The notes under the pieces: generated by a model
Database searches by the model: none
Seen by the model: only the letters and a program-made list of their open reading frames with translations
Told to the model about the DNA's origin: nothing
Part shown: piece after piece, positions 9,131 to 18,758 of the stretch
Numbering within the stretch: position 1 is the first letter of the stretch
How the letters are laid out: each line of letters opens with the position of its first letter
DNA from: Bacteroidia bacterium
GTDB lineage: Bacteria > Bacteroidota > Bacteroidia > Bacteroidales > Prolixibacteraceae
Length of the DNA: 36,884 nucleotides
Assembly: GCA_026391315.1 (NCBI GenBank)
Contig: JAPLDT010000100.1
Coordinates: forward strand, 1-36,884
Direction of reading: 5' to 3'
Program-made: the position numbers and the translations under genes

Positions 9131-9151
9131 TATATTTGACAATATTTGACA
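9131..9151 (+). promoter_or_regulatory. -7 box overlapped by tandem ATATTTGACA repeats (candidate operator)
   Basis: TATATTTG at 9131-9138 fits the TAnnTTTG box. It overlaps two exact tandem copies of ATATTTGACA at 9132-9141 and 9142-9151, one helical turn apart, 22 bp before the GTG start of the XRE gene. A repeat over the promoter is what a self-regulating controller would need. No -33 element was found at 19-21 nt. The rest of the 161-bp spacer after lpxB is AT-rich and holds no gene. Confidence 0.45.
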
Positions 9152-9173
9152 AGCCAAATAAAGTACAAATTAA

Positions 9174-9473
9174 GTGAACAACTTAGGTCGAAAAATTAGA
9201 GAACTAAGAGAAAAGCAAAATCTACTTTTGAGACAAGTGGCTGCACGACTTGAGGTGGATACAGCATTAATAAGCAAGATTGAGAGAGGAGAACGCAACG
9301 CTTCAAAACAGCAGGTTATTGACATTGCTAACTTTCTGAAAGCAAATGAAGAGGAACTTTTAACTCTATGGTTGGCTGACAAAATTAAATCTGTAATTGT
9401 TGAAGAACCGGCTATAGCCTATCAGGCCATGAAGATTGCCAATAAAAACCTAAAAAATGAAGAAAGGCATTAA
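9174..9473 (+). CDS. XRE-family HTH transcriptional regulator
   Basis: A 99-residue DNA-binding protein. Residues about 5-60 form a Cro/C1-type helix-turn-helix (LGRKIRELREKQNLLLRQVA, then VDTALISKIERGERNASKQQ), and a short C-terminal helix may serve in dimerisation. The start is GTG at 9174; no upstream ATG exists in frame and the family consensus begins here. The stop codon lies inside the next gene (17-bp overlap), so the two are translationally linked. It resembles controller (C) proteins of restriction-modification systems in size and position. The likely job is timing or repression of the downstream helicase and methyltransferase; this is inferred from context. Confidence 0.85.
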   Translation: MNNLGRKIRELREKQNLLLRQVAARLEVDTALISKIERGERNASKQQVIDIANFLKANEEELLTLWLADKIKSVIVEEPAIAYQAMKIANKNLKNEERH

Positions 9474-12400
9474 ACTCATAGACAATTCCTGCGATGAATA
9501 TCAGTTGGGAAGTGTGCTCAAAGAGTTGATAAGCGGCAAATCATTTTCGCAAATCTCCATTGCAACTGGGTATTGGGATTTACCCGGTATGGTCGAAATA
9601 CTGACAGAACTTTCTCAATTTCTTGAAAGAGAAAATATCACATTTCGCCTACTGTTGGGGGAAGAACCGTCCGTCAAAGCATATCAGGTTAAAAACCCCG
9701 CAAAACAAGACCCGGATTTTCCCGAAAAATACTTGAAAAAAGATTTAGAGGAGTTACAACTGAAAGAGGAGTTTCAAAAGGTTGCTGAACTGTTGGGAAG
9801 ATACATGAATGGAGGCAATTCAGATAAAATCCAAATCAAAGTTTACCGAAAAAAATTCCTTCATGCCAAGTGCTACATTTTTGGAAATGATGAAGAAAAT
9901 GCTGTTGGCATTATAGGAAGTTCCAACTTTACCAAGCAGGGTTTGTTCGGTAATCTTGAACTGAATCAGTTCGAGGACAACAACGCAACCGTAAATTATA
10001 TAAGAAAGAATTTATCGCAACATCCTTCGCATCGGTCATGGTTTGAAGAACTATGGAATAACAGTGAAGATTGGTCACGGACTTTCAAAGAAGAGATTTT
10101 AGCATTGAGCAAACACGGTGGAACTTGTTTTAGTGCCTATGAAATGTATATCCATGCTTTGTACCGCATCTACGGACAGGATTTGCAAGATGAAAAGGAA
10201 AACAAAGTTGATATTGACGACCCGGCATCAGGTAAACCACAATTACTGAAATTTCAGATTCAAAATGCAAACAGTTTAATCAAGAAGTTGGAAAGACAAG
10301 GCGTTGCGATGCTTTCCGATTCAGTTGGCCTGGGCAAAACTTATACTGCAATTAAAGTAATTGAGTACTACAAGCACAACATGAATCAGCGTGTAGTAGT
10401 AATTGCACCTGCAGGACTAATACCACAGTGGAGAAAAGCGTTTGACGATTTCAGGGTTATACACATTCCGGAAATTTACAGTTTGCAGGATACGGAACGG
10501 ATAAAAGATGTTCGCGAAAACTTGCAATCCATTCCGGTTGGTTTGTTTGTGTTTGATGAAAGCCACAACCTGAGAGCATCAGGTGGACAGCGATTTGATG
10601 TGTTTATTAAATGGCGCCAGGAAAACGAAAATGCAAAAACGTTAATGCTCACTGCAACTCCAATCAATAATCAATTAGCCGATCTGACTAATCAAATCAT
10701 GTTGGGTTCAGGAGGTGATATTTTTAAGTTAGGGAAATTTTATGACCGTAGCAGGCAGAAATATTTTACGCTGAAAGAGAGGCTGGAACTTTTGCAAACC
10801 GACATGAAAAAGCAAATTCGTGAAAGCGGTTTCATTAATTATCAGCAAATCAAAGAGCAACTTACTCCCTTGCTTAATCGATTCATTGTAAGAAGAACAA
10901 GACAGGGAATTGAAAAGGAATATCCTGAAGGTTTGGTGATAAACGGCAAACTGCAAAAATTTCCCAAATCTTACCCTGACAATTTAGAGTATGAGGTACC
11001 TAATCAATTCAAGTCGCAACTATTGAAAAGTGCAGCACAAAACACAGAATTGACAAGGGCTTTCAACTATGAAATAAATAGTTTGGCCGAGTTGGAATAT
11101 TTGGCCCATCCGCTTGACTTGTTTGAACACTACACAGAAAGGGACAAACCAATTCAATCATCGCTTGAAATTATTTACACTGCATTATTGAGTTTAGGCT
11201 TTCCATGCTACCGATATAATATTTACCGTTATGCTTATTACGGGAGAAAACGAGGAGAGTTAGAATTGAATGCAGACGAGAACCGCGAACTTAGCAGACA
11301 AATAGGTATATACGGAATTTTCAGGACGGTATTTTTAAAGCGTTTGGAATCTTCACTTTTTTCTATCAATAAATCAATTGAAAGCTACGAAAGAAAGTTA
11401 AAGGATTTTCAAACCAAACTGGAGAAATTCAACAAAATTATTTCGGTAAAAAATCTTTCAGCCTTAAACAAAGCTATTGATGCATACAACGAACAGAATG
11501 CTGAAGAAGATGAATTGGATTTTGACATTGAAAGCTTTGAAGAAACCGAACAGGAATTTGTAACCATTGTTGCAGATAAAGGTGTTTTCAATGTGGCACA
11601 AATGAAAGCAGACATCCAAAAAGACCTTTCTATTGTTGGTATTTTAAAAGAGCAAATAGCTTTACTAATAAAAAAGGATGATAAAATTCAGGAATTGGCA
11701 AAACATCTGAATCAGAATGAGGAGAGAAAAGTATTGGTGTTCACCTACTTTGCCGATACATTGAAATATCTTTCTGAAAATCTTCCTCAGTATCTGATAA
11801 AGAAAAAGAATATTGAATTTGCGTTGGGTTCGAAGGGTGAGATTGAAGACTTTGCAAAACGCTTTGCACCTGTTTCCAAAAAATACCAACTCAAAAAAGG
11901 CGAAAAAGAAATTGATTTTCTGATTGCCACCGATAAACTTTCGGAAGGCCAAAACTTGCAGGATTGCGGAATGATTGTGAACTACGATTTGCACTGGAAT
12001 CCTGTAAGAATGATTCAACGAAACGGAAGAATTAACCGATTGGGAACCGTTCACGAAGAAATATTTGTTTACAATTTCAGACCAGAAGAACAGTTGGAAA
12101 ATTATTTGCAACTGGTGAGAAAATTACAAGACAAAATCAATCTCATTCGCTATACCATTGGTAGCGACCAAAGTGTTTTAGATGAAGAACCCATTCCACA
12201 GGATTTCACCGAAGACCTTTACAGCCGTGATGAAAAGAAACGATTGGCAGCGTTTCAAAAAATATTTGAAACCTCTGAGTTGCTTGCAGCCGAAGACTTA
12301 TTTATGGATGACCTTAGAGCATTTGACCGTAATGAAAATTTCAATCCAACTTACATTGAACAAATAAAAAATTTACCGAAGGGGAAATGGGGCAAAGTTC

Positions 12401-12960
12401 AAATGAAGAAAGAAGAGGACGATTTTATTCATCTTGCCCATTTGGCAGCTGGTGAAGATGCTACCTTCGAAGCAGGATATTTTGTCGCTTTCAATAAAGA
12501 TAAAGTTGGTGAACTCTTCACAAATGTAGAAGGACTTTTATCTATAAAGGCCACGAGTGAGCAGAATGAACGCTTTACAGACAAGTTCAAAAATAAACCA
12601 GAAGCTGAAGCATATATTTTGGATTTTATCCAGCGTTACCAATTTTCGGAAGAAGAACATCGTGTTAAATACAATCAACCACAACAGGCAGCATTCTCCT
12701 TTATGATTAATAAAATGATGGAATACGGCTATGCTGTTTCTGAAATCGAAAAGGTGAGCAATTCAGTTTTGCATTCGCAAAATGCATACATCAACAAAGA
12801 AAATTTAAAATTAGTTCGTTTGATAAACCGTTTGAACCGTAGACAGGAACACATAGGCGATGAAATAATCAAGCAATTTATTTCATTGGCCAATCAGTAT
12901 AAACCTGAAGAAAAAACAGAAAAGGCACCATTGAAAGAAATCATACAAATATTCGCATGA
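9457..12960 (+). CDS. PLD-domain SNF2/SF2 helicase of a restriction-like defence system
   Basis: A 1167-residue predicted DNA translocase and nuclease. Residues about 20-200 form a phospholipase D-like domain with one HKD half-motif: H136-x-K138, then the GSSNFT segment with N157. SF2 helicase motifs follow: Walker A DSVGLGKT at 288-295, motif Ia VVVIAPAGLIPQW, DESH box at 367-370, motif III TATPINNQ, motif V ATDKLSEGQNLQD and motif VI QRNGRINRLG from 854. A long, charged, partly coiled-coil insertion (about 610-750) lies between the two RecA-like lobes. One HKD per chain implies a dimeric active site, as in BfiI-type nucleases. It overlaps the regulator by 17 bp and the methyltransferase by 4 bp (ATGA). 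Line 11401-11460 is only 27% GC. Comparable parts occur in DISARM (DrmA, DrmC), but there they are separate proteins. Confidence 0.85.
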   Translation: MKKGIKLIDNSCDEYQLGSVLKELISGKSFSQISIATGYWDLPGMVEILTELSQFLERENITFRLLLGEEPSVKAYQVKNPAKQDPDFPEKYLKKDLEELQLKEEFQKVAELLGRYMNGGNSDKIQIKVYRKKFLHAKCYIFGNDEENAVGIIGSSNFTKQGLFGNLELNQFEDNNATVNYIRKNLSQHPSHRSWFEELWNNSEDWSRTFKEEILALSKHGGTCFSAYEMYIHALYRIYGQDLQDEKENKVDIDDPASGKPQLLKFQIQNANSLIKKLERQGVAMLSDSVGLGKTYTAIKVIEYYKHNMNQRVVVIAPAGLIPQWRKAFDDFRVIHIPEIYSLQDTERIKDVRENLQSIPVGLFVFDESHNLRASGGQRFDVFIKWRQENENAKTLMLTATPINNQLADLTNQIMLGSGGDIFKLGKFYDRSRQKYFTLKERLELLQTDMKKQIRESGFINYQQIKEQLTPLLNRFIVRRTRQGIEKEYPEGLVINGKLQKFPKSYPDNLEYEVPNQFKSQLLKSAAQNTELTRAFNYEINSLAELEYLAHPLDLFEHYTERDKPIQSSLEIIYTALLSLGFPCYRYNIYRYAYYGRKRGELELNADENRELSRQIGIYGIFRTVFLKRLESSLFSINKSIESYERKLKDFQTKLEKFNKIISVKNLSALNKAIDAYNEQNAEEDELDFDIESFEETEQEFVTIVADKGVFNVAQMKADIQKDLSIVGILKEQIALLIKKDDKIQELAKHLNQNEERKVLVFTYFADTLKYLSENLPQYLIKKKNIEFALGSKGEIEDFAKRFAPVSKKYQLKKGEKEIDFLIATDKLSEGQNLQDCGMIVNYDLHWNPVRMIQRNGRINRLGTVHEEIFVYNFRPEEQLENYLQLVRKLQDKINLIRYTIGSDQSVLDEEPIPQDFTEDLYSRDEKKRLAAFQKIFETSELLAAEDLFMDDLRAFDRNENFNPTYIEQIKNLPKGKWGKVQMKKEEDDFIHLAHLAAGEDATFEAGYFVAFNKDKVGELFTNVEGLLSIKATSEQNERFTDKFKNKPEAEAYILDFIQRYQFSEEEHRVKYNQPQQAAFSFMINKMMEYGYAVSEIEKVSNSVLHSQNAYINKENLKLVRLINRLNRRQEHIGDEIIKQFISLANQYKPEEKTEKAPLKEIIQIFA

Positions 12961-15900
12961 GCGTCAACGATATCAATATAGTACTCGCACAACTTACAAA
13001 AGATCCCTCAAGGGAAAATATCCTTGACCTTTCCTTCAGCTTGTTACAATGGATGGGTATCGAACCCAATACAGGAAACAAACCACAACTTCTGTCACCT
13101 CAAACGCAAAAGCTAAAAGACTTTTTGGCAACCGCGCCGCAAACAGTGCAACCACAACTTTACCGTTTATCAGCCGATAACCAGAATATCCGTATCCGAT
13201 TTGCCGTATTAAAAAAATTAAAGAAAGAATACATCAGCCAGCTGGTCAACAATGATCCGGGACTTGGCAGTTATCAGGCGATGGCCAAAGGTTTAATCCA
13301 ACCAAAAACTGGCACAACATATATTCCTTCACAGCCTTACTACATTCACTTTGTCACAACAACCGATTACAATAAACTGGTTTTGATTTTCAACCAGGGT
13401 GAGCAAAAAAGAGTTGTAGCATTTCGCAACAGGTTAACCAATACGCAATTCAACAAAATCATTCAGTTGTGGCAGGGCATCGGCACAAAATCAAAACCGG
13501 AAATTACCGATTTGTTGTGGAAATCACTTGATATCAAAGAGGTAAACAAAGAGTTTTATCGGCAGGTTAAAGATAAATACGACACCCTTCTGGGTATTTC
13601 CAAGACACAACTACCAGCGTTCGATGTGAATATCGCGAAACAGTTTGCCGTTAAGCTTATTGGCCGTTATATTTTTTGCTGGTTCCTGAAAGAAAAAGGG
13701 GTCATACCTGAAAGACTGCTCTGTTCTGAAACGGTTTCGCAATACCGCGATAATTATTTCCAGGTTTTCCTGACCAAGCTTTTTTTTAAAACGCTCAATG
13801 GCGAAGTGACCGATTCGGTGCGTATCGAAAACCTTACCGAACTCGACGAACTGTATAAAAACATCCCCTACCTCAATGGGGGCTTATTCGAATATCACGC
13901 CGAACAGGATGTATTGTTCGACCAGCTTGATTTGAACGACTGGTTGATCTCGTTTGTAAAGGTACTCGAAGAGTTTGATTTTACGGTTGACGAAAGCAGC
14001 AGCCAATACCAGCAGGTGGCTATCGACCCCGAAATGCTTGGCCGTATTTTTGAAAATCTGCTGGCCAGTCAAAACACCGATACAGAGAAAATGGCCAATC
14101 AGCGCAAAGCATTTGGCGCATTTTACACCCCTCGCGAAATTGTTGATTACATGGTCAACGAAAGCCTGAAAGCGTCACTTGCAACAAGGCTTTTGCCGGC
14201 ATTGCCTGAACAAGCCAACGTTGTGAATGAATCATTTGTTGAAATGAAGGGTACGCTGTTTCAGGATATTGTTGCCGAACCTCCAAGAACGAAATATTAC
14301 AACGCAGAAATTACTGATGTGGAGCAAAAGCGTGATCGGCTTAATGTAAAAATCGATAAACTTTTTGCCATCGATTGCTGCGAAAACCCATTTGAGAAAG
14401 AAGAAACAGCAGAGGTACGAAAAGCTTTGAGCGAAATAACCGTGCTCGACCCTGCCTGTGGATCCGGCGCTTTTCCTATGGGCATGATGCTGCGCCTGAT
14501 GGAACTCCGCCAGATTGTAGGGCATGGGCACCGGAACAATTACGACCTGAAAGAAGAAATACTGAGCCGGAACATTTATGGAGTTGATATTATGCCTATG
14601 GCCGTTGAAATTGCCCGACTCCGGGCTTGGCTCAGTTTGGTATTGGAAGCCGATTACAAACCCAACGACCGCAAAAACAATTTTGGTATTGCTGCCCTGC
14701 CCAATCTCGACTTTAAGTTTGTGTGCGCCAATTCATTAATTGATAGCGGGTATGATGCCTTTTTAGAAAATGTACATCACAATTTGACTCTTTACCGCTT
14801 GGATGGCGAAATACAAAAACTCGAAAATGTCCGTAACAATTATTTTGACCCACGGGGCGATAAAACCAGAAAAACCGAGCTGCAAAACGAATTCCTGAAC
14901 ACGAAGAATTACATTAAAACCGAGTTTGAAAGCCTGAGAAAGAATTGGAACCTCGAAGATTTTTTAAGCAAGGTTGACGAATGGAACCCCTTCGATAACA
15001 GCCATCCATCCTCGTTTTTTTCACCAGGCTGGATGTTTGGCATCCGCAATGGGTTTGATGTGGTGATTGGGAATCCGCCGTATGTTAGTGCTAATAACAT
15101 GAAGTTTGAGCAACGTGTCTTTTTCAATAGTTACAGTTATTATAACACATTAAAAGGCAAATGGGATTTATATGTTGCTTTTACCGAAAGATCTTTGAAA
15201 CTGCTGAGAACCAGAGGTGTATTTACTTTTATTGTACCCTTCGGGTTGCTTAATCAGCCGTTTGCTCAACATTTAAGAACTTTGATTCTATCTGATTATA
15301 AATTAGTAAGTATTGTTGATTTGCATAATAATAAAATTTTCGAAAATGCAACTGTCCCATCATGTATCCCTTTAATCAAAAAAGGTATAAGTAAAAATCA
15401 TGATGTTGTGATTCTAGATTTTAAAGACGAAAAGTTTGAGAAATTATATCTCATTGGAATAGAGAAATATTCTGCATCAACTCAACAGATGTTTAGAACG
15501 GAGGATTTAGATGTCAAAACTGCAGTGTTAGACAAAATTAGACAAAAGGGTGAAAATCTTGACAGTTTCTTTTATTGTTCGACGGGAGCAGAGATTCATG
15601 GGAAGGAGATAAGAAACGATAATGGAACCTTAACTTCTGGTAAAAGTAAATTCGATGTATTGTACGATCAATTTAATGAAGGATTGATGCCTTACATTGA
15701 AGGTTCTGACATAAAGAAATCAAAGGAGGGAAGGTATTCATGGCCGAGAATCACCCAATGGATTGACATTAATAAACCGGAAGAAATGCGATCTGCCAAA
15801 TTCAAAGAACTCTTCGAAAGTGAAAAAATTATAATTAGAAGAAGTTCAGGACTGCTAAGAATTTTGGCTGTTTATGATGATAGAAAGATTTATACATCGG

Positions 15901-16301
15901 AAAAATGCATACTAATTCTTAATAAGTCTAGCCTTCCCCAAAAACACTCTCATTATGAAAATAATGATAAAATTGATCTAAAATACCTTATTGCTATTCT
16001 GAATAGTCAACTTATTGATTTTTATTATGAAAGTGTATATGGTGGATTTATTGATGTTTACCCCAATAATTTAAAAGAGCTTCCGATAGTATATTGTGAT
16101 CAAGCTATTCAAAATGATTTTGTTGGCAGAGTTGAAATGATACTCAACCATAGAAAGGAAGATAAGTTCACTACTGACTTGGAAAAAGAAATTGATGTGC
16201 TGGTTTACAAGCTGTATGAGCTTACTTATGAGGAGGTAAAAGTGGTTGACAAGGATTTTTGGCTGAGTGAAGAGGAATATGAAAATTTAAAGATAGAATA
16301 G
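12957..16301 (+). CDS. Eco57I-like N6-adenine DNA methyltransferase with specificity domain
   Basis: A 1114-residue methyltransferase of the type IIG/PglX-like class. The SAM-binding motif I DPACGSG is at residues 498-504, a second conserved segment (GVDIMPMAVEIARLRAWL) follows, and catalytic motif IV NPPY is at 706-709, giving N6-adenine specificity. Residues after about 720 form a TaqI-like target-recognition region. The N-terminal 350 residues are mostly helical, and I see no PD-(D/E)xK nuclease motif, so cleavage probably depends on the helicase partner. The start overlaps the helicase stop in an ATGA. The catalytic half has ordinary composition (57% GC in line 14461-14520), while the recognition half is strongly AT-rich (25% in 15301-15360, 30% in 15901-15960). 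That fits exchange of the specificity part. Confidence 0.9.
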   Translation: MSVNDINIVLAQLTKDPSRENILDLSFSLLQWMGIEPNTGNKPQLLSPQTQKLKDFLATAPQTVQPQLYRLSADNQNIRIRFAVLKKLKKEYISQLVNNDPGLGSYQAMAKGLIQPKTGTTYIPSQPYYIHFVTTTDYNKLVLIFNQGEQKRVVAFRNRLTNTQFNKIIQLWQGIGTKSKPEITDLLWKSLDIKEVNKEFYRQVKDKYDTLLGISKTQLPAFDVNIAKQFAVKLIGRYIFCWFLKEKGVIPERLLCSETVSQYRDNYFQVFLTKLFFKTLNGEVTDSVRIENLTELDELYKNIPYLNGGLFEYHAEQDVLFDQLDLNDWLISFVKVLEEFDFTVDESSSQYQQVAIDPEMLGRIFENLLASQNTDTEKMANQRKAFGAFYTPREIVDYMVNESLKASLATRLLPALPEQANVVNESFVEMKGTLFQDIVAEPPRTKYYNAEITDVEQKRDRLNVKIDKLFAIDCCENPFEKEETAEVRKALSEITVLDPACGSGAFPMGMMLRLMELRQIVGHGHRNNYDLKEEILSRNIYGVDIMPMAVEIARLRAWLSLVLEADYKPNDRKNNFGIAALPNLDFKFVCANSLIDSGYDAFLENVHHNLTLYRLDGEIQKLENVRNNYFDPRGDKTRKTELQNEFLNTKNYIKTEFESLRKNWNLEDFLSKVDEWNPFDNSHPSSFFSPGWMFGIRNGFDVVIGNPPYVSANNMKFEQRVFFNSYSYYNTLKGKWDLYVAFTERSLKLLRTRGVFTFIVPFGLLNQPFAQHLRTLILSDYKLVSIVDLHNNKIFENATVPSCIPLIKKGISKNHDVVILDFKDEKFEKLYLIGIEKYSASTQQMFRTEDLDVKTAVLDKIRQKGENLDSFFYCSTGAEIHGKEIRNDNGTLTSGKSKFDVLYDQFNEGLMPYIEGSDIKKSKEGRYSWPRITQWIDINKPEEMRSAKFKELFESEKIIIRRSSGLLRILAVYDDRKIYTSEKCILILNKSSLPQKHSHYENNDKIDLKYLIAILNSQLIDFYYESVYGGFIDVYPNNLKELPIVYCDQAIQNDFVGRVEMILNHRKEDKFTTDLEKEIDVLVYKLYELTYEEVKVVDKDFWLSEEEYENLKIE

Positions 16302-16322: not shown

Positions 16323-18758
16323 ATGTTAAGCCTCATAAAAAAAGAACTCCTTCAATTTTTCGGATCATTGATTGCCTACCTTATCCTGGCGGTCTTTGCG
16401 CTGATTACCGGATTGTTCCTATGGTTCTTTGACGGGAACATGAACATTCTTACGGGAGGATACGCCTCTATCTCCTCCTTTTTTGATCTGGCGCCCTGGT
16501 TGTACCTGTTTCTGATCCCTGCAATCACCATGCGGCTTTTTTCGGAAGAGGTGCGGAGCGGTACCATGGAATTGCTGCTGACTAGGCCATTAACTGTTTT
16601 TCAGTTGATTATGGCCAAATTACTTGCAGCTTTTTTTGTTGTTTTTCTGACAATTCTTCTGTCTCTCGTCTATTTCTATACGGTTTACCAGCTTGGAAAT
16701 CCCGTTGGTGTAGTGGATGTGGCGGCAACCTTTGGAAGCTACTGCGGACTGCTTTTACTTGCACTGATATTTTTGTCGGTTGGATTGTTCACCTCTTCGC
16801 TCTCCGAAAACCAGATTGTGGCCTTCGTGCTGGCAGTTCTGCTCTCGTTTTTCCTCTTCTCCGGATTTGAACTCCTTTCAGACCTGACATTACAGACATC
16901 TCTATCCTCCTTCCTGCTTTCGCTGGGAATCTCCGCGCATTACGAATCCATCAGCAGGGGGATGATCGATAGCCGTGATCTCTTCTATTTTTTAACGGTT
17001 GCCGCTACCTTCCTGATTCTGACAGGTGTTGCCTTAAACTGGAAAAGAACAATTGTATCCTTGCAGCGCAGGCGGATAACTCTCTATCTGCTTCCAATTC
17101 TTGGTTTATTAGTTTTGGCCAACCTTCGGCTCTTTCGTCTGGATTTTACCGGTGAAAAAAGATTTACCCTCTCGCCCTCATCCATCAGGGTACTCGAAAA
17201 AATTGACAAACCGTTGATGGCCGAAATTTATCTGGAGGGAGAGATGCCGGTCGGATTTCGCAGGCTTAAAACAGCCATTGTCGAGAAATTGACTGACCTT
17301 CAGCAGTATCGGAAAAATTCGATCTACATCCGAAAAGTAGATCCTTACAAAGAGGTCTCCGCCCAGGATCGAAAGGCCTATTTTGATCAGTTGTTTCAGC
17401 ATGGAATTGTTCCTACTGATTTGAGAATCAAAACAGAACAAGGCATCACTACCAAACTGGTATTTCCTACAGTAGTTTTGCATTATGGTGAAAGGTCGAT
17501 GGTGCTGAACCTGCTCAAAAACGATCCGGCACAACCAGCCGAGGAGAACCTGAACCGTTCTGTTGAGCTACTTGAGTATGAATTCATGAATGCCATCAAC
17601 ACGCTCACCCGCGATAAACCGACACATGTTGCCTTTCTGGAGGGGCATCAGGAGGCCGACTCTTTGCAACTCCTCGACTTTTCTTCCGCCTTGTCTTCCA
17701 ACTTTGCCGTTTCCAGGGTAAACAGCAACATGCTCATGTCCAACCCTGACAGTATCAGGGTACTCCTCGTGGCCAATCCACTTTCTAAATTTTCGGAACG
17801 CGACAAATTGATCCTGGACCAGTACCTGATGAAAGGTGGCAGGATGGTCTGGCTCATCGATCCTGTCAAAGTGAGCCTGGATAGCCTCTCCGAAGGGATG
17901 ACTACCCTGGCGCTTCCGGTAGATCTCAACCTCAGTGATCAGTTGTACCACTATGGTGCCCGCCTGAACAATGACCTGATTCAGGATGCCGAATGTCTGC
18001 AAATACGTGTCAATACGGCTCCGATAGGGGCTTCGCCCCACTATTCCATGGCGCCATGGAATTTTTCACCTTTGCTGCATCCACTGCAGTCGCATCCCAT
18101 CGGAAAAAATGTCAATCCGGTCTCTGCCGAATTCATTAGTTCGATCGATACAGTGGGTGAGAATCCGGATGTACGCAAGAAAGTGCTACTAAGCTCGTCG
18201 CCTTTTTCCCGCAAGAATGAAGCGCCGGTCCTGGTTAATCTTAGGATGATTGATGTGGTTCCATCCCGAAATTTTTTCAACAAATCAAATCTGATCACAG
18301 GGATTTTGCTGGAAGGAAAGTTTAGCTCTGTTTTCAAAAACAGGATTGTTGATATGCCCGATCTTCCGGCAGGATTTAAACCGATTGTCGGGAGCAAGCA
18401 AACCCAGATGGCGGTTTTTTCGGATGGTGGGCTCATCTCAAATAAGGTTAACCGAACCACCAATGAGCCTAAAACAGTTCCGCTGGGATACGACCGTGTT
18501 TCAAAAATCACTTGGGGAAACCGAGATTTTTTCGTCAACCTGGTCCAGTACCTCAGCGACGATGCCTCACTGATTGAGTTACGCGGTAAATCGTGGCAAC
18601 TTAGGCTTCTTGATAAAGTAAAAGTCAACGCCCAAGGCAATTTTTACAGGTGGTTCAACCTGGTTCTTCCGTTGGCGCTCATTCTGATTTTAGCCGTTTT
18701 ATTTACCTGGCGGAGAAAGCGGTTGAACGAAAAACCACAACTGAAAACTGTAAAGTGA
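16323..18758 (+). CDS. Fused GldF-GldG gliding-motility ABC transporter subunit
   Basis: An 811-residue membrane protein combining two proteins that are separate in Flavobacterium. Residues 1-245 are GldF-like ABC-2 permease with about six membrane helices (15-36, 55-75, 98-122, 138-160, 163-182, 218-238) and the loop EEVRSGTMELLLTRPLT. A helix at about 251-270 starts the GldG-like part, with DFTGEKRFTLSPSSIRVL, a large periplasmic ABC_transp_aux-type region and a C-terminal anchor at 779-795. It would pair with the ATPase GldA, which is not in this window. The family supports gliding or type IX secretion-related envelope functions. The start is 21 bp after the defence cassette, with no visible separate promoter. 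The next gene is dnaN, as in many Bacteroidota. Confidence 0.88.
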   Translation: MLSLIKKELLQFFGSLIAYLILAVFALITGLFLWFFDGNMNILTGGYASISSFFDLAPWLYLFLIPAITMRLFSEEVRSGTMELLLTRPLTVFQLIMAKLLAAFFVVFLTILLSLVYFYTVYQLGNPVGVVDVAATFGSYCGLLLLALIFLSVGLFTSSLSENQIVAFVLAVLLSFFLFSGFELLSDLTLQTSLSSFLLSLGISAHYESISRGMIDSRDLFYFLTVAATFLILTGVALNWKRTIVSLQRRRITLYLLPILGLLVLANLRLFRLDFTGEKRFTLSPSSIRVLEKIDKPLMAEIYLEGEMPVGFRRLKTAIVEKLTDLQQYRKNSIYIRKVDPYKEVSAQDRKAYFDQLFQHGIVPTDLRIKTEQGITTKLVFPTVVLHYGERSMVLNLLKNDPAQPAEENLNRSVELLEYEFMNAINTLTRDKPTHVAFLEGHQEADSLQLLDFSSALSSNFAVSRVNSNMLMSNPDSIRVLLVANPLSKFSERDKLILDQYLMKGGRMVWLIDPVKVSLDSLSEGMTTLALPVDLNLSDQLYHYGARLNNDLIQDAECLQIRVNTAPIGASPHYSMAPWNFSPLLHPLQSHPIGKNVNPVSAEFISSIDTVGENPDVRKKVLLSSSPFSRKNEAPVLVNLRMIDVVPSRNFFNKSNLITGILLEGKFSSVFKNRIVDMPDLPAGFKPIVGSKQTQMAVFSDGGLISNKVNRTTNEPKTVPLGYDRVSKITWGNRDFFVNLVQYLSDDASLIELRGKSWQLRLLDKVKVNAQGNFYRWFNLVLPLALILILAVLFTWRRKRLNEKPQLKTVK

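What the first reader, a model, noticed from the sequence alone, without database searches (positions are those of the whole stretch)
9174..16301. Three-gene restriction-like defence cassette: XRE regulator, PLD-SNF2 helicase, Eco57I-like methyltransferase
Three tightly overlapping genes (17-bp and 4-bp overlaps) join a controller-size XRE protein, a helicase with an N-terminal HKD nuclease half-site, and a large N6-adenine methyltransferase with no visible nuclease domain. The parts recall DISARM (DrmA helicase, DrmC PLD, DrmMI methylase) and BREX (PglX), but DrmB, PglZ and BrxC are absent and PLD and helicase are fused. It may be a compact defence type in which the helicase translocates and cuts unmethylated DNA.
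Basis: partly seen in the sequence, partly recalled or inferred. Interest (0 to 1): 0.8.

Follow-up and report, generated by a model that had tools for sequence, protein, structure and literature searches.

The report
Compact helicase-methylase restriction cassette
A mobile three-gene cassette in a Bacteroidota genome looks like a stripped-down restriction system: one protein seems to recognise and mark DNA, another to move along and cut DNA that lacks the mark, and the part that chooses the target is swapped between relatives.

Summary
The three overlapping genes are there as described: XRE regulator (9174-9473), PLD+SNF2 helicase (HEL, 9457-12960) and Eco57I-type adenine methylase with TaqI-like target domain (MT, 12957-16301). 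They form a mobile unit: HEL (62-92% identical) is followed by MT in 15 of 15 close loci, XRE precedes in 11; five of five testable same-genus genomes have 65-221 nt instead. Motifs are intact and selection is purifying.

Two findings favour restriction-modification. MT's target domain is exchanged as a block between relatives while HEL and the rest of MT stay. A double-half-site operator lies 38-42 nt before XRE in 10 of 11 XRE loci. In four distant relatives an Mpi-family invertase and an inverted spare target domain flank MT; all share CGACCGATTTTA, so their specificity is probably switchable (inversion not observed; not in the window).

It is not DISARM, BREX or a DUF499 BREX-related system: defining genes were sought and not found. 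Best reading: a split, Type ISP-like ATP-dependent restriction system with a PLD nuclease (0.62). The closest described set, type-2 BREX-related, has the same helicase-methylase pair plus DUF499 and DUF3780. New variant of a known kind; no activity has been shown.

The parts
9135..9157 (+). Conserved operator/promoter element TTTGACAnnnTTTGACAAGyCAA, 39 nt before the XRE start
   Evidence: 10 of 11 XRE-bearing close loci within 2 mismatches, none in 4 XRE-less close loci; only hit in the 4.69-Mb genome with up to 1 mismatch, reversed-pattern control 0
9174..9473 (+). XRE regulator, controller-protein size (99 aa, GTG start)
   Evidence: homologue in 10 of 14 other close loci
9457..12960 (+). 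HEL: PLD + SNF2 helicase, 1167 aa
9547..10020 (+). PLD domain of HEL (residues 31-188); HxK at 9862-9870, GSSN at 9916-9927
10240..12045 (+). SNF2-type motor of HEL (residues 262-863; Walker A GLGK 291-294, DE-H 367-370, QR-GR 854-858)
12957..16301 (+). MT: Eco57I-type N6-adenine methylase with target domain, 1114 aa
12957..13514 (+). MT N-terminal 186 residues, present in the close loci, function unknown (partner contact or nuclease remnant)
   Evidence: mostly pLDDT below 50; most distant MTs align only from about residue 182
15078..16106 (+). MT target domain (residues 708-1050), exchanged as a block
   Evidence: in DNA, identity to L054 is 88-96% over 14950-16149

Best explanation
A compact ATP-dependent restriction-modification system, best pictured as a split Type ISP-like enzyme with a PLD nuclease. 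MT binds a short target through its exchangeable target domain and methylates an adenine (inferred from fold and motifs). Where it meets an unmethylated target it recruits or activates HEL, whose SNF2 motor translocates and whose PLD half-sites pair between two HEL molecules to cut (inferred by analogy with Type ISP, CglI and SauUSI). MT would thus set specificity for marking and cutting alike, which explains why its target domain is swapped while HEL is not. XRE binds the double-half-site operator before its own gene and times expression, as controller proteins do (inferred). Shown here: gene order, intact motifs, recurrence, lateral insertion, target-domain exchange, conserved operator. Not shown: any activity or protection.
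For: HEL-MT adjacency in 15 of 15 close loci (L066 is cut by the contig end after 50 residues of MT; L052 and L067 have one gene between). 4-bp HEL/MT overlap in 6 of 10 loci measured. In viral contigs 22 of 27 MT-family loci also hold a HEL-family ORF. Catalytic motifs invariant; dN/dS 0.03-0.04 for HEL, 0.09 for MT 1-707. Target-domain exchange: of 36 pairs of 9 MTs, three have target domains 79-96% identical with 53-80% before them; the other 33 have 14-35% with 50-87% before them; two such blocks are visible in DNA. PLD domain nearest PDB 2c1l, a restriction endonuclease (BfiI, recalled), E 0.0022. Operator. Lateral insertion. Precedents: abstracts of PMC5737866 (CglI), PMC7913695 (SauUSI), PMC7049714 (Type ISP).
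Against: No experiment. Four of 15 close loci lack XRE (L055, L066, L068, L070). L052 has an in-frame stop in HEL. The D of the HKD motif is missing. In the wider 34-sequence alignment H136 and K138 are not among residues conserved at 90%, so some relatives may not cut. MT residues 1-186 could not be modelled and could hide a nuclease remnant. That HEL takes its target from MT is inferred, not measured. HEL's best structural matches are generic Snf2 motors, not a restriction enzyme.
Confidence: 0.62

Rival explanations
1. BREX-like exclusion without cutting: MT marks DNA, and HEL loaded at unmarked targets blocks replication as a motor, its PLD domain serving in binding or assembly.
For: MT's full-length structural neighbours include BrxX/PglX (9ewz over 1036 columns); the HKD motif lacks its D; the reviewed BREX type 1 excludes phage without cleavage (PMC12707154, passages).
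Against: H, K and GSSN are invariant in the 13 close HELs aligned; the PLD domain aligns with a restriction endonuclease; no PglZ in the operon or over cut-off in the genome.
Confidence: 0.13
2. HEL is a modification-dependent (Type IV, SauUSI-like) nuclease that attacks foreign marks, and MT is a companion that does not guide it.
For: PLD-helicase in one chain as in SauUSI (PMC7913695 abstract).
Against: HEL and MT are adjacent in 15 of 15 close loci; no reader domain was found in HEL by Pfam.
Confidence: 0.08
3. A remnant of DISARM or a DUF499-type system that has lost its other genes.
For: HEL resembles DrmD and HmaA profiles.
Against: The same short unit is kept in many genomes under purifying selection, and scores are far below the family cut-offs.
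Confidence: 0.08
4. Mainly an epigenetic regulator: MT methylation controls genes, with HEL as an accessory remodeler.
For: Best PDB match of MT is CamA, a solitary methylase; relatives have an inversion cassette, as phase-variable methylases do.
Against: The nuclease half-site and motor of HEL are conserved and always paired with MT in the close set.
Confidence: 0.07

Closest known systems
Type-2 DUF499-centred BREX-related (BR) systems (PMC12839542, sections 28 and 30 read, other passages seen)
   Same: HKD endonuclease fused to a Swi2/Snf2 helicase, partnered with an N6-adenine methylase; predicted there to work like restriction-modification.
   Different: Those are built round a DUF499 ATPase and have DUF3780 in 98% of taxa. 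This genome has no DUF499 and no DUF3780 hit (control silent too).
Type ISP restriction enzymes (PMC7049714, abstract)
   Same: SF2 motor, N6-methylase and target domain act together; target recognition by methylase and target domain turns on the motor.
   Different: One polypeptide with an Mrr-like nuclease (recalled); here two polypeptides, with a PLD nuclease on the motor chain.
CglI / NgoAVII (PMC4267653 passages and section 22; PMC5737866 abstract)
   Same: PLD nuclease plus ATP-driven helicase-like motor; over 95 fused PLD-ATPase homologues were already counted.
   Different: Target recognition by a B3 domain on the nuclease subunit and a separate C5 methylase.
SauUSI (PMC7913695, abstract)
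   Same: Nuclease domain and helicase-like translocase in one chain, working as a dimer held by the nuclease domains (PLD named in PMC12707154, passages).
   Different: Cuts modified DNA and needs no methylase partner.
PbeA / CxC-ABC systems (PMC10853773, passages)
   Same: HKD endonuclease fused to an SF2 helicase, in some loci with methylases (cytosine-type there).
   Different: Centred on an ABC ATPase-DndE core that is absent here; PADLOC PbeA 2.9e-24, below C3a139.
DISARM class 1 pair DrmD-DrmMI (pairing recalled)
   Same: SNF2 helicase with an N6-methylase.
   Different: DrmD 144.5 bits against cut-off 610; no MZB domain in the genome.
PADLOC profile C3a139 'HKD+Snf2'
   Same: Best PADLOC hit of HEL, 2.2e-51, so this helicase type had been noted before.
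   Different: A single profile whose parent system I do not know; no description of an XRE-HEL-MT unit was found in the paper searches made.

Membership tests
DISARM | DrmD helicase over its curated cut-off | tested here: not met
   144.5 bits against 610, 65.2 against 950
DISARM | DrmB (MZB, formerly DUF1998; link recalled) in the locus | tested here: not met
   no MZB match in the window's genome; hits in 4 of 10 genomes, on contigs other than the cassette's; control rang in 8 of 14
BREX | PglZ | tested here: not met
   own genome: one match under cut-off, on another contig; 8 of the other 9 cassette genomes have PglZ-domain hits over cut-off, none on the cassette's contig; control rang in 2 of 14
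BREX | PglX over its curated cut-off | tested here: not met
   87.1 bits against 500 (BREX-1); lower for BREX-2, -5, -6
BREX-related type 2 (DUF499) | HKD-Snf2 helicase with N6-methylase | tested here: met
   definition from PMC12839542 section 30
BREX-related type 2 (DUF499) | DUF499 ATPase | tested here: not met
   none in the own genome; 3 of 10 genomes have one on other contigs; control rang in 1 of 14
BREX-related type 2 (DUF499) | DUF3780 | tested here: inconclusive
   0 of 10 genomes, but the control was silent too
Type IIG restriction enzyme | Nuclease domain in the methylase chain | tested here: inconclusive
   no Pfam nuclease; residues 1-186 not modelled with confidence
Type ISP-like mechanism | Target-activated translocation and cleavage | not testable with these tools
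   needs purified proteins
Controller-protein (C-protein) regulation | Small XRE protein with a conserved repeated-half-site element before its own gene | tested here: met
   10 of 11 XRE loci within 2 mismatches, L067 degenerate
Controller-protein (C-protein) regulation | Binding of the protein to that element | not testable with these tools
   needs a binding assay; TTGACA also resembles a promoter box

The most novel reading that the evidence does not exclude
A self-standing class of two-component ATP-dependent restriction-modification system: a PLD-SNF2 translocating nuclease plus a methylase that is the only specificity subunit, with target domains exchanged between lineages and, in relatives from Bacteroidota to a Lactococcus plasmid, flipped by an Mpi-family invertase at a shared site in the target domain. 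It may be close to the minimal module round which DISARM class 1 and BREX-related systems added further genes.
Probability: 0.4. Interest if true: 0.75.

Novelty: new variant of a known kind. Interest (0 to 1): 0.6.

Why it matters
If right, two proteins suffice for ATP-driven self/non-self discrimination without DUF499, PglZ or DrmB. One swappable domain would set the target for both marking and cutting, so how a methylase tells a translocating nuclease to attack becomes directly testable. The inversion cassettes of relatives would let one clone change its restriction target and its DNA marking pattern in a single step.

Tried and rejected
Led nowhere: no tRNA/tmRNA and no Rfam match in the window, so no integration site is visible. 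HEL and MT models are of medium confidence (mean pLDDT 70.9 and 68.7); no fold could be assigned to MT 1-186. Phage records: 13 with some similarity to HEL, none covering 80%. The lactococcal pan-plasmidome paper (PMC6458302, passages only) did not mention the pJM1F unit in what I saw. The DrmD model rings below cut-off in all 14 control genomes, so presence or absence of weak hits says nothing.

Considered and rejected: DISARM or BREX membership (defining features not met); chance overlap of frames; a contaminating contig (flanking genes match same-genus genomes); the window cassette itself being invertible (no CGACCGATTTTA anywhere in the window, and core genes on both sides).

L069 and L071 (35-39% HEL) are outside the close set of 15. 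The target-domain matrix used 9 of 15 MTs: L049, L053 and L066 are cut by contig ends, L055 is split, L067 and L070 were simply not included. The HEL comparison holds 13 sequences (the window and 12 of the 14 other close loci; L052 and L066 left out).

'Not found' means not found by these in that open-access library.
Full report
WHAT IS THERE. Three + strand genes overlap by 17 and 4 bp. XRE (9174-9473) is a 99-residue helix-turn-helix protein with a weak match to PADLOC controller proteins (5.9e-9; capH is slightly better, 4.1e-9). HEL (9457-12960) joins an N-terminal PLD domain (31-188) to an SNF2-type ATPase; its best PADLOC profile is C3a139 'HKD+Snf2' (2.2e-51). MT (12957-16301) is an Eco57I-type N6-adenine methylase with a TaqI-like target domain, best matched by a type IIG profile (1.2e-93). 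Neighbours are surE and lpxB upstream, a gldF-gldG gene and dnaN downstream; the cassette sits alone among core genes.

IS IT INTACT. H136, K138 and GSSN (154-157), Walker A, DE-H and QR-GR of HEL are invariant in 14 sequences, and DPA-GSGAFP and NPPY of MT in 12. The PLD domain finds 2c1l, a restriction endonuclease (BfiI, recalled), E 0.0022, with HxK and SxNFT aligned. The D of a textbook HKD motif is absent. HEL dN/dS against L049, L050 and L051 is 0.03-0.04, MT 1-707 against L054 0.09 (dS exceeds 1, so rough).

RECURRENCE. Among 140 genomes of the family (own included) 4 others hold HEL at 80% or more. Samples of 393 from the order and 395 from the phylum (own included in both) gave 5 and 2 others at E 1e-80 or better, one of each at 39%. 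A scan of GTDB genomes gave 9 loci at 74-92%, among them Sphingobacterium lumbrici and an Ignavibacteriae MAG. Without duplicates the close set is 15 loci with the window. MT follows HEL in 15 of 15 (L066 ends after 50 residues of MT; L052 and L067 have a gene between), XRE precedes in 11 of 15. More distant HEL-MT pairs are common: of the 16 distant loci among the 20 fetched, 10 hold both at 24-30% HEL identity (L038 by a weak, truncated MT match). The own genome has a second such pair on contig C39. In viral contigs 22 of 27 MT-family loci also hold a HEL-family ORF. On plasmids 566 records show some similarity, 5 of them over 80% of HEL: four Lactococcus, one Lactiplantibacillus. In phage records 13, none over 80%.

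MOBILITY. Of the 7 other genomes of the genus, 5 hold lpxB and gldFG on one contig, 65-221 nt apart; here the gap is 7310 nt. G025 gave no gldFG match and in G028 the two lie on different contigs. lpxB is 72-84% identical within the genus (84% being a 165-residue piece), while HEL is 89% identical to that of Sphingobacterium lumbrici, of another order if the window's family is that of locus L056, a Prolixibacteraceae MAG (inferred; orders recalled). GC3 of XRE and HEL (0.31, 0.36) is below the other window genes measured (0.45-0.57); MT 1-707 (0.48) is within that range. The reading is lateral insertion.

THE TARGET DOMAIN IS SWAPPED. Among 9 full-length MTs of the close set, residues 1-707 are 50-87% identical over all 36 pairs; residues 708-1050 are 14-35% in 33 pairs and 79%, 92% and 96% in three. 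The window and L054 share 96% in the target domain and 74% before it. In DNA their identity is 88-96% over 14950-16149, 59-89% in the bins before (one bin, 14500, reaches 89%) and 81% just after. L052/L057 show 92-95% over L052 15256-16155 and 56-87% before. GC3 of the target block is 0.26. HEL shows no such break in the same comparisons, though its last 170 residues vary more. This is expected if MT alone sets sequence specificity and HEL follows it.

THE OPERATOR. TTTGACA-nnn-TTTGACAAGyCAA lies 39 nt before the XRE start (9135-9157). It is kept at 38-42 nt in 10 of 11 XRE-bearing close loci with at most 2 mismatches; L067 is degenerate; none of the four XRE-less close loci has it. It is the only hit in 4.69 Mb allowing one mismatch, but the reversed control also gave none, so the weight lies on its conservation. 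TTGACA resembles a promoter box; promoter and operator may overlap. Autoregulation by XRE is the natural reading, as in C-protein systems (recalled).

AN INVERSION CASSETTE IN RELATIVES. Beside MT in four distant relatives lie a convergent spare target domain and a serine invertase over NCBIfam's Mpi cut-off: L039 (G025, same genus as the window), L071 (G751), L072 (Lactococcus cremoris pJM1F) and L166 (viral contig 3300000304_000212). Exact inverted repeats join MT and cassette: 261 bp in L166, 56 bp in L039, 23, 22 and 20 bp in L072, only 13 bp in L071. All four share CGACCGATTTTA, one copy in MT and one in the cassette frame (L072, L166) or 43-60 nt before it (L039, L071), 1292-1432 bp apart. 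The site is absent from the 24 other loci tested with the first three, the window included; among L077-L199 it occurs only in the L166/L147 contig. A scan of 2.9 million viral contigs for an extended site drawn from L039 and L072 returned one contig, that of L166. Part of the shared site codes for a protein motif (RPIL), which could account for some of the likeness. All four HELs keep HxK and GSSN; by simple expressions Walker A (G[LT]GKT) was not matched in L071 nor DE[SA]H in L039. Inversion itself was not observed, and the window locus has no such cassette.

MECHANISM. Best reading (0.62): MT recognises and methylates; at an unmethylated target it licenses HEL, which translocates and cuts through paired PLD half-sites. 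Precedents: Type ISP, where recognition by methylase and target domain turns on the motor (PMC7049714, abstract); SauUSI, a dimer held by its nuclease domains that translocates and shreds DNA (PMC7913695, abstract); CglI, one nuclease site per R2H2 complex with translocation (PMC5737866, abstract). Structure searches fit the parts: MT nearest CamA and BrxX/PglX, HEL nearest Snf2 motors.

WHAT IT IS CALLED. Not DISARM (DrmD 144.5 bits against 610; no MZB in the genome). Not BREX (PglX under cut-off; no PglZ over cut-off in the genome). Not a DUF499 BREX-related system (no DUF499 in the genome). The closest description is the type-2 BR system (PMC12839542, sections 28 and 30). Fused PLD-ATPase proteins were counted by 2014 (over 95, PMC4267653 section 22). 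Hma (PMC8565338, passages) is helicase, methylase and ATPase. The 2008 MORC survey (PMC2292703, passages) lists a few Rad25-like helicases with N-terminal HKD domains in restriction operons; PbeA (PMC10853773, passages) is an HKD-SF2 fusion with an ABC partner. No paper describing the XRE-HEL-MT unit or its inversion cassette was found in the ten searches, which cover open-access papers only.

VERDICT. New variant of a known kind; interest 0.6.

Noticed in passing
L039:11015-11070 and 12439-12494, invertase 12757-13353: Same-genus genome with a likely invertible target-domain cassette: 56-bp exact inverted repeat and Mpi-family invertase next to a HEL-MT pair.
   Followed up: yes
L166:7931-8191 and 9481-9741, invertase 9802-10401: Viral contig with a 261-bp perfect inverted repeat between MT and a spare target domain; the only contig returned by a scan for the extended site.
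   Followed up: yes
L072 (Lactococcus cremoris pJM1F):8763-9557: Gene annotated 'TaqI-like C-terminal specificity domain-containing protein' looks like the inverted spare target domain of the neighbouring methylase.
   Followed up: yes
L029:3680-10774 (own genome, contig C39): A second, distant HEL-MT pair (about 26% identical) in the same genome, followed by a gene with an SMC/ABC-type ATPase domain.
   Followed up: partly
L077:4957-12838: Viral contig with HEL, a SoFic-like Fic protein, then MT: a possible third partner.
   Followed up: partly
L050:7641-11517: Downstream of the cassette, a GHKL-type ATPase (HATPase_c_3) and a 633-aa protein with no Pfam or PADLOC match.
   Followed up: partly
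L035:2024-9047: An SNF2 helicase of this wider family between a type III Res subunit and a DUF4391 gene; L037 has a similar layout but was not scanned.
   Followed up: partly
L067:15418-15481 and 16697-16760: Two further copies (92% alike over 64 nt) of DNA coding for MT's C-terminal tail, with other genes between, as if inserted by recombination.
   Followed up: no
L076:5049-13274: Parabacteroides plasmid with genes annotated RNA-binding domain protein, SNF2-related protein and N-6 methylase in a row: a cousin of the unit.
   Followed up: no
window 16323-18758: gldF and gldG lie fused in one frame (GldF part 284.2 bits, just under its 288.5 cut-off; GldG part 490.8 bits).
   Followed up: no
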